Assembly (NCBI GenBank): GCA_903895855.1
Contig: CAITVN010000194.1
Location: 18,093 to 82,092 of the forward strand
Origin: Oligoflexia bacterium
GTDB lineage: Bacteria > Bdellovibrionota > UBA1018
Direction of reading: 5' to 3'
DNA length: 64,000 nt
The notes beneath the pieces were generated by a model. The model searched no databases. It worked only from the letters and a program-made list of their open reading frames with translations, and was not told where the DNA came from. A program made the translations under genes and the position numbers. This document shows positions 27,310-29,031 of the stretch, in pieces (position 1 is the first letter of the stretch; each line of letters opens with the position of its first letter).

Positions 27310-27692
27310 GTCAGTTCTGACTGATTAGGCCTTTAATACAGGTGGTGAGTTTGAATAATCTTTCAAAATTTTGATGATACCATTCATCTTCTATAGGACT
27401 GAGGTAAAAAAGGGTTCCTGCAAGGTTATGCGTCTTAAGAATAGAGTTGTTTCGGTCCTACTCGTTTTTTCGGGGCCGACTTCGTGTCGTCGCCCGCCAT
27501 GGCGCATCGTGCGCCGCGGGAGCCCGCAAAAATGAGTAGGACCGAAACAACTCTATTCTTAAGTGCAGGCAATGCAGGATGCAGTTCCTTTCCTTAACTC
27601 AGTCATACAGAAGATGATTGGCATCATGAGAAATGCTTGGTCTCGGTTCGGGTTTAGCACCTGAGCTAAATGCCTAATCAGTCAGTTCTGAC
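27310..27692. repeat. Palindromic element 1 (~383 bp): perfect 30-bp inner arms, diverged outer arms, GC-rich core
   Basis: 27434-27463 CTTAAGAATAGAGTTGTTTCGGTCCTACTC is the exact reverse complement of 27534-27563; outer CTGACTGATTAGGC (27317-27330) is the exact reverse complement of 27672-27685; intervening arms alignable but imperfect. Confidence 0.92.
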
Positions 27693-27754
27693 ACAGCAGG
27701 CTCAGGCTAGTTTGGGCGAGTTCGTTAAAGGATATTGAAAATCTAGCCGAAGTA

Positions 27755-27779
27755 ATAGTAGACTATAGTGGTCTACTAT
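27755..27779. promoter_or_regulatory. Short inverted repeat upstream of metalloprotease lipoprotein gene
   Basis: ATAGTAGAC-tatagtg-GTCTACTAT, 9-bp perfect arms ~20 bp upstream of the ORF start. Confidence 0.45.
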
Positions 27780-27799
27780 AGAGTGGGGGCGAGGTCATC

Positions 27800-28627
27800 G
27801 TGCTAAGGCGATCGAAAATGAATCATCGACTATCGGTAGTGTTCGTGTGCGGGGCCACAGCCTTGCTCGCTAGCTGTGCTGAATTTGTTCCGACGACCAC
27901 TAGTGGCGATTCATCAACCACGCAGGTGCTCGTGAAAACTTGCGTCGTGCCGGAAGATCAAAAAGGAACCTTTTCGGGTCGCTGGAAAATGTCGGGAATT
28001 CCGATAGCTCTTGATCAAAATAGCGAATTTGACAAAGCTGAAACAGAAGATGTCATAGCGGCCGCTGATAGCTGGAATACTTTTTACCAAGGAAGTCTGG
28101 GAATTGAAAAAGTCTTAGATTATGGAACCAAAGAGTCGCCCCGCACTTCAAATGTGGCAAAACCAACCACGCTTTGCCAATCGGGCATTGTGCAAGGTGG
28201 GCAGTTCACAGGCCAAGTCATCATTTACAAAATGGGAAAATGGCCGAAAATTTACTCAAGCGAAGCGATCGCGATTACGACTTTTTGTCCGACTCCATCA
28301 AATCCGATTCCGCAATTTTATCACGGCCAGATGGAGATCAATTATGAAAATTTCTTCGTCGAAGGTAAACGTAACCCCGATTTGAGATCGATTGTTTTGC
28401 ACGAGTTTGGGCACTTGCTGGGCCTTGATCACAGTTGTGATAGCAAAGGAAAAAAAGGCTCACCAGATTGTGGAAATAGCTCGTTGCCGGATGTCTACCG
28501 CGCGGCATCGCTTTACTATTCTTTTGGATTTGACTCATCAACCGGGGCCGGCGAGCAGCGCCGTACTTTAAATGAAAATGACCAAGGCCGCGGTAATTGC
28601 CTGTATTCTGATCTTATCCCGAAGTGA
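27800..28627 (+). CDS. Matrixin-like zinc metalloprotease lipoprotein
   Basis: HEFGHLLGLDH (HExxHxxGxxH metzincin motif); lipobox LLASC; start may be GTG 27800 or ATG 27818. Confidence 0.78.
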   Translation: MLRRSKMNHRLSVVFVCGATALLASCAEFVPTTTSGDSSTTQVLVKTCVVPEDQKGTFSGRWKMSGIPIALDQNSEFDKAETEDVIAAADSWNTFYQGSLGIEKVLDYGTKESPRTSNVAKPTTLCQSGIVQGGQFTGQVIIYKMGKWPKIYSSEAIAITTFCPTPSNPIPQFYHGQMEINYENFFVEGKRNPDLRSIVLHEFGHLLGLDHSCDSKGKKGSPDCGNSSLPDVYRAASLYYSFGFDSSTGAGEQRRTLNENDQGRGNCLYSDLIPK

Positions 28628-28650
28628 TCGCTCAGTATTTATGAGCCGCC

Positions 28651-29031
28651 CCCGACGTTGCCTACGCAAATTTCATCCATGCTGCTCTCATCTTTTACCG
28701 CACTCAGAGTTAGGCCTCACTGTCAGACTCCAGCGTTGATGAAACAAGATCCGCAGACACCTGTGCTTCTTTTTAATTTCGGGTCTGGTAGAAACTGACC
28801 TGCTTTTTGGGCACGTCATCCATGACTCGCCCGCATCGCGCTTTGACGCGCGAACGCATACGCTTGCGGGAGACCTCAAAAACAGGTCAGTTTCTACCAG
28901 ACCCGAAATTAAAAGGCTTTTCAGGTGGCGAGGACTTTGTTTCATCAACGCTGGAGTCTGACAGTGAGGCCTATATCAGATTAGACTTAAATGAGACTGG
29001 CATGGTTGGAATTTGCATAGGTAACGCTGAC
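28651..29031. repeat. Palindromic element 2 (~381 bp): perfect 32-bp inner arms and 37-bp middle arms, diverged outer arms, GC-rich core
   Basis: 28771-28802 is the exact reverse complement of 28883-28914; 28711-28747 is the exact reverse complement of 28937-28973; 28651-28691 vs 28991-29031 about 30/41 identical as inverted repeat. Confidence 0.92.

What the first reader, a model, noticed from the sequence alone, without database searches (positions are those of the whole stretch)
27464..28882. Shared branched core in both palindromes: candidate undescribed structured repeat family
Element 1 core TTTTTTCGGGGC-CGACttcgtGTCG-TCGCCCGCcatGGCGCatcgtGCGCCGCGGGAGCCCGCAAAAA and element 2 core CTTTTTGGGCAC-GTCATccATGAC-TCGCCCGCatCGCGCtttgaCGCGCG...TTGCGGGAGACCTCAAAAA share T-run, TCGCCCGC, GCGGGAG and A-run in the same order. 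Both can fold as a three-way junction. The small first hairpin differs in sequence but stays paired (CGAC/GTCG vs GTCAT/ATGAC), i.e. looks covarying. A conserved core enclosed by locus-specific palindromic arms is not a pattern I recognise from REP, ERIC, IS200/605 ends or attC sites. One model is a core that triggers inverted duplication of flanking DNA by template switching; another is a hairpin DNA or RNA that a host factor recognises.
Basis: partly seen in the sequence, partly recalled or inferred. Interest (0 to 1): 0.85.

Follow-up and report, generated by a model that had tools for sequence, protein, structure and literature searches.

The report
Mobile palindromes with a branched tip
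The two odd palindromes are members of a large, apparently undescribed family of short jumping DNA elements in Bdellovibrionales bacteria: almost the whole element folds into one long hairpin with a conserved three-armed tip, and the two sides of each hairpin keep changing together, as if one side were copied onto the other.

Summary
Both palindromes belong to a family of about 90-98 loci in this 5.4-Mb Bdellovibrionales MAG. The family is multi-copy in relatives of another family of the order (core-only model: 42, 25 and 21 copies). Every full copy examined is a near-perfect hairpin of about 165-420 bp with the same apex: helix H1 (loop ATCGT/ATCCT/TTCGT), then a bulged helix carrying H2. Arms vary greatly but stay paired (28/39 and 34/54 pairs change on both sides).

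The elements look like non-autonomous mobile DNA (MITE-like). Copies of one subfamily share terminal inverted repeats. Element 1 has a perfect 12-bp target duplication, and six B copies have 10-bp ones with a YTAR centre. In relative G045, fixed 198-bp hairpins share their ends with a 1,026-bp element encoding a divergent IS1-like DDE transposase.

Arm pairing looks DNA-level rather than RNA-level. Mirrored two-sided changes outnumber one-sided ones even between closely related copies, half are transversions, and G-T is not clearly favoured. Arm-to-arm templated correction is the best reading. The apex's job is unknown. No paper or Rfam family describing it was found.

The parts
27310..27321 (+). 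left copy of the 12-bp target-site duplication GTCAGTTCTGAC of element 1
   Evidence: exact direct repeat abutting both ends of the element
27322..27680 (+). element 1 (subfamily A), 359 bp, terminal inverted repeats TGATTAGGCC... / ...GCCTAATCA
   Evidence: TIR shared with L007 and L080; hairpin MFE z = -20
27436..27565 (+). inner arms and apex of element 1 (match to model R1)
   Evidence: 131.6 bits
27477..27489 (+). H1 of the three-way apex, CGAC-TTCGT-GTCG
27493..27520 (+). second apex branch: CCCGC-cat-GGCGC-ATCGT-GCGCC-GCGGG (bulged helix with H2)
27681..27692 (+). right copy of the 12-bp target-site duplication
28656..29026 (+). element 2 (subfamily B), palindrome of 371 bp, outermost pairs CGTTGCCTA.. 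/ ..TAGGTAACG; no clear target duplication
   Evidence: arm extension (118 of 147 columns paired) mapped from L004 2857-3227; MFE z = -22
28771..28916 (+). inner arms and apex of element 2 (match to model R2)
   Evidence: 145.1 bits
28805..28881 (+). apex of element 2: H1 GTCAT-cc-ATGAC, TCGCCCGC, H2 CGCGC..GCGCG, extra hairpin AAcGC..GCTT, GCGGGAG

Best explanation
The two palindromes are copies of an order-wide family of non-autonomous, MITE-like mobile DNA elements of Bdellovibrionales. Nearly the whole element is one long inverted repeat ending in a conserved three-way-junction apex. Copies move as units through their terminal inverted repeats with the help of a DDE transposase acting in trans (supported by the IS1-like partner in one relative; inferred in the window's own genome). 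They accumulate in gaps between genes, most often between convergent genes, where insertion does least harm. After insertion, hairpin extrusion during replication or repair lets one arm serve as template for the other, so substitutions are mirrored and the palindrome persists while its sequence drifts into private arms. In old copies the copying can run past the element's ends and duplicate the neighbouring gene or tRNA end in inverted orientation (inferred). The apex stays conserved in sequence and shape, presumably because a protein recognises it or because a branched tip makes the long palindrome tolerable (inferred).
For: Copy number: about 98 merged loci in the own genome, some being halves of one copy at contig ends. 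Relatives: 42, 25 and 21 copies with a model made of the apex alone, without arms. Mobility: 12-bp duplications GTCAGTTCTGAC and GTCAACGGTGAC in subfamily A; six B copies with 10-bp duplications at 7-10 of 10 identity and a YTAR centre, e.g. GTATTAGCCG and GGTCTAATGG. Subfamily C copies are near-identical and sit at many contig ends. G045: 41 end motifs with 0 in the reversed-pattern control, spaced about 198 bp; one belongs to a 1,026-bp element with matching ends encoding P0001. All 34 aligned homologues match NCBIfam IS1 transposase, D131, D210 and E243 are invariant, and the model's best solved match is a DDE transposase. Position: 28 of 45 copies between convergent genes against 10 of 49 neighbour pairs in the window, Fisher p 5e-5, none inside an ORF. 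Arm correction: 20 informative independent copy pairs have 112 two-sided Watson-Crick changes (57 transversional) against 57 one-sided, G-T 18 versus A-C 10, p 0.18; pairs over 90% identical show 36 two-sided, 10 G-T, 20 other. L052 has both arms homogenised where sisters keep an internal loop, and L051 has that loop flipped.
Against: No transposase with the A, B or C ends was found in the own genome: whole-genome end-motif scans hit only hairpins or solo ends, and no IS1-like gene lies in 1.17 Mb of own sequence (the rest was not searched). Subfamily C and the G045 elements show no target duplication, and G045's 1,026-bp element has none visible either, which is not typical of IS1. No D copy shares ends with another, so mobility of D is inferred from its apex only. 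The IS1 match is below NCBI's cut-off. No strain pair with a filled and an empty site was available.
Confidence: 0.72

Rival explanations
1. A structured non-coding RNA, or RNA 3' end / terminator element: the hairpins are transcribed from the upstream gene, protect or terminate the mRNA, and selection on RNA folding keeps the arms paired.
For: Copies sit just behind stop codons and between convergent genes. In relatives the same apex lies 3' of tRNA-Ser, tRNA-Pro and valS on the sense strand. G059 has the apex inside a U-tailed hairpin. Apex loops are conserved.
Against: G-T pairs are not significantly commoner than A-C (18 vs 10), and half of the double changes are transversions, which cannot pass through G-U. 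No U-tract follows the stem in most copies. Target duplications and end repeats are not explained. No Rfam family matches.
Confidence: 0.13
2. The apex is itself the unit: it lands at gene or tRNA 3' ends and then triggers inverted duplication of the upstream flank by snap-back copying, so the arms are born at each locus.
For: In six of six tRNA-linked copies the right arm holds an inverted copy of the tRNA 3' end scoring above all 100 shuffles. In G045 the outer right arm matches the last valS codons inverted. D copies have arms and ends without homology to one another. The apex is conserved while ends differ between subfamilies.
Against: Subfamilies A, B, C and the G045 set share arms and ends among copies, and A and B have target duplications outside the whole palindrome, so these moved as finished hairpins. 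The valS codons could have come with the element. No empty site was available to show which arm is old.
Confidence: 0.15

Closest known systems
YPAL / RU-2 Yersinia palindromic sequences (PMC2229807)
   Same: Intergenic palindromic mobile elements; target duplications of variable size (3-26 bp); targets spanning or next to dyad symmetry.
   Different: YPAL is about 168 bp with few paired bases at its ends and no described branched apex, arm turnover or transposase partner; here the palindrome runs end to end, up to 420 bp.
MITEs in general (RUP, Correia/NEMIS, Chunjie, QMITE; PMC10969869)
   Same: Under 500 bp, non-coding, terminal inverted repeats, target duplications in two subfamilies, intergenic, stem-loop forming; ends shared with an IS in one relative.
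   Different: Typical MITEs conserve the ends and vary inside; here the apex is more conserved than the ends, and TIRs differ completely between subfamilies.
REP/BIME palindromes (PMC3733652)
   Same: Intergenic palindromes, enriched at gene 3' ends.
   Different: REPs are 20-40 bp with a GTAG or CGTC tag and RAYT Y1 transposases; here size, apex and target duplications differ.
Quasi-palindrome correction; nematomorph mitochondrial palindromes (PMC6649704)
   Same: Near-perfect arms, mirrored changes, repeat conversion proposed.
   Different: Those lie in coding mtDNA without a shared apex or mobility signs.
AAV-type T-shaped terminal repeats (from memory, a lead only)
   Same: Long stem with two small hairpins at the tip.
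   Different: Interstitial in chromosomes, no Rep gene or nicking site known; not tested.

Membership tests
MITE | short (<500 bp), no coding capacity | tested here: met
   sizes about 165-420 bp; no gene in the elements by inspection of ORF lists
MITE | terminal inverted repeats shared by copies | tested here: met
   A, B and C in the own genome, AACTGGC.. in G045; not met for D
MITE | target-site duplication | tested here: inconclusive
   A 12 bp, B 10 bp; absent in C and in 17 G045-type elements
MITE | ends shared with an autonomous element encoding a transposase | tested here: met
   in G045 only: L310, 1,026 bp, P0001; not found in the own genome
IS1 family (for P0001) | similarity to IS1 transposase model | tested here: inconclusive
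   34 of 34 homologues hit NF033558, best 1.5e-14, P0001 32 bits against cut-off 100; no Pfam hit
IS1 family (for P0001) | DDE catalytic triad in an RNase H fold | tested here: met
   invariant D131, D210, E243; predicted fold closest to ISCth4 transposase and retroviral integrases
YPAL | sequence similarity to YPAL | not tested
   Yersinia chromosomes are not in the collections searched; the comparison rests on PMC2229807
REP/RAYT | 20-40 bp palindrome with GTAG or CGTC tag | tested here: not met
   size and end sequences
Rfam structured RNA families | match above gathering score | tested here: not met
   (only tRNAs found)
Intrinsic terminator | GC stem followed by U-tract | tested here: not met
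   T-run lies 5' and A-run 3' of the apex; exception G059 L087

The most novel reading that the evidence does not exclude
The three-way apex is a separate structural module that survives changes of transposon ends (subfamilies A, B, C and the G045 set have unrelated ends but the same apex), and it drives templated copying of one flank into the other, so that palindromes grow outward and capture host gene and tRNA ends in inverted form.
Probability: 0.25. Interest if true: 0.85.

Novelty: new variant of a known kind. Interest (0 to 1): 0.62.

Why it matters
Long palindromes are normally unstable in bacteria (general knowledge), yet these genomes keep dozens of them near-perfect while the sequence turns over. 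The family gives natural replicates for measuring arm-to-arm template-directed correction, offers a candidate transposase-MITE pair to test, and asks why a branched tip is conserved. It also warns that strong covariation alone does not prove a functional RNA: here it probably comes from DNA copying.

Tried and rejected
Retron or other reverse-transcriptase origin: RT genes in 10 of 15 element-bearing genomes and 20 of 46 others, p 0.15, and five bearers have none. Phage or plasmid origin: no match for the element tested in each collection. Solo ends L066, L170 and L187 as autonomous partners: no transposase there. First genome contigs pattern found nothing. IS1-like gene in the own genome: none in 1.17 Mb. 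Empty-site test at valS: the three copies are inherited in related species and other species' 3' regions are too diverged to mark the insertion point. First joint alignment A3 was too loosely aligned for RNAalifold, so R3 was built from nine better-aligned cores. Literature searches for a described family found none.

Full report
WHAT IS THERE. The quoted cores are in the window in the stated order. They are the tips of much longer palindromes: element 1 lies between two copies of GTCAGTTCTGAC (27310-27321 and 27681-27692), and element 2 pairs from about 28656 to 29026. Folding energies are 20-22 standard deviations below shuffles. The window is contig C194 of a 5.37-Mb MAG. Relatives that carry the same apex are named Bdellovibrionales or Proteobacteria freshwater/pond MAGs.

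FAMILY SIZE. blastn with each element found two subfamilies, A (element 1) and B (element 2). A covariance model from A copies (R1) added subfamilies C (about 165-170 bp, near-identical copies at many contig ends) and D. Merging all lists gives 98 loci, some of them halves of one copy. R1 rewards any long hairpin: element 1's own minus strand scores 41.5 bits. So the distribution claim rests on R3, a 61-position model of the apex without arms. It finds 32 matches in the own genome, 42 in G045, 25 in G055, 21 in G053 and a few in ten more genomes; in all, 14 of 60 genomes of the order have one.

ARCHITECTURE. All subfamilies share H1 (3-5 bp, loop ATCGT, ATCCT, TTCGT or ATCCA), a short linker, a helix of about 5 bp with a 5' bulge leading to H2 (loop ATCGT or ATCC(A)T), and a return into the arm. 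B has one extra small hairpin. Covariation is far above both controls: A1 28 of 39 pairs, A2 34 of 54 pairs, covariation scores 0.61 and 0.44 against 0.17 and 0.16 shuffled and at most 0.15 slid. Across subfamilies and relatives the apex alone keeps 84% of cells paired against 70% shuffled and at most 48% slid.

MOBILITY. Copies of one subfamily share ends. B has 10-bp duplications at six of six full copies, with YTAR in the centre; A has 12-bp duplications, perfect in two copies; C has none. In G045 the hairpins are fixed 198-bp units whose end motif occurs 41 times, with none in the reversed-pattern control. No duplication of 2-15 bp is seen there, while flanks show a slight excess of inverted pairing over the first five positions, p 0.003. 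One of the 41 motifs is the right end of a 1,026-bp element whose left end also matches (20 aligned columns, 16 identical) and which encodes a 316-aa protein. That protein and 33 relatives match the IS1 transposase model below its cut-off, share invariant D131, D210 and E243, and the predicted fold is closest to DDE transposases and integrases (mean pLDDT 79). This is shown by sequence only; activity is inferred. No equivalent was found in the own genome.

ARMS. Two-sided changes dominate. In 20 informative non-overlapping closest pairs: 112 two-sided Watson-Crick changes, 57 of them transversional, against 57 one-sided, of which 18 G-T, 10 A-C and 29 others (two further rows there are one locus listed twice). 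Selection on RNA should leave G-U intermediates; they are not significantly commoner than A-C. L052 has the conserved internal loop homogenised and L051 has it flipped relative to the apex, as expected from arm-to-arm copying and inversion. There was no positive control with a real RNA family, so the argument is strong but not closed.

FLANK COPIES. Six tRNA-linked copies in relatives (tRNA-Ser in G026, G039, G045, G048; tRNA-Pro in G002, G020) have an inverted copy of the tRNA 3' end in the right arm, above all 100 shuffles each time; some of the Ser loci may be the same inherited insertion. A second hairpin in G026 starts with a direct copy of that tRNA end. Behind valS the outer pairs include the last codons. 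Either palindromes grow into flanks by copying, or elements arrived with such ends; empty sites would decide.

POSITION. 28 of 45 own copies with both neighbours called lie between convergent genes, 2 between divergent ones, none in an ORF; the window's ORF pairs give 10 convergent of 49. Both sets use a simple ORF caller (110 aa minimum), so the contrast is approximate. Element 1 is one of the two divergent exceptions; element 2 follows a matrixin-like gene.

COMPARISON. The family works like a MITE and meets most MITE features, with target duplication in two of the subfamilies. YPAL is the closest published relative in behaviour (PMC2229807). The branched apex that is more conserved than the ends, the length of the palindrome and the mirrored arm turnover are, as far as the searches went, new.

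Noticed in passing
L310 499-1525 (G045:C4): 1,026-bp IS1-like insertion sequence whose single-ORF transposase family has over 4,600 homologues but no Pfam match; its ORF reads 13 nt past the right end of the element.
   Followed up: partly
L190 2537-3054 (G026): Two apex hairpins in tandem behind tRNA-Ser next to a likely serS gene; the second begins with a direct copy of the tRNA 3' end, like a site-specific insertion.
   Followed up: partly
L087 (G059): The apex sits inside an ordinary intrinsic terminator stem (AAAAAGCCC...GGGGCTTTTTT).
   Followed up: no
window 27800-28627 and L191 1690-2517: Matrixin-like lipoprotein gene between the two elements resembles, by eye, the gene upstream of valS in G045, where another apex hairpin follows valS.
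   Followed up: no
G045:C2:494066-494133 and C1:134719-134807: Short derivatives with both ends but no apex, probably internal deletions.
   Followed up: no
contig ends C12, C52, C56, C58, C60, C61, C83, C84, C130, C236 of G000: Near-identical subfamily C copies break the assembly, which suggests recent spread.
   Followed up: partly
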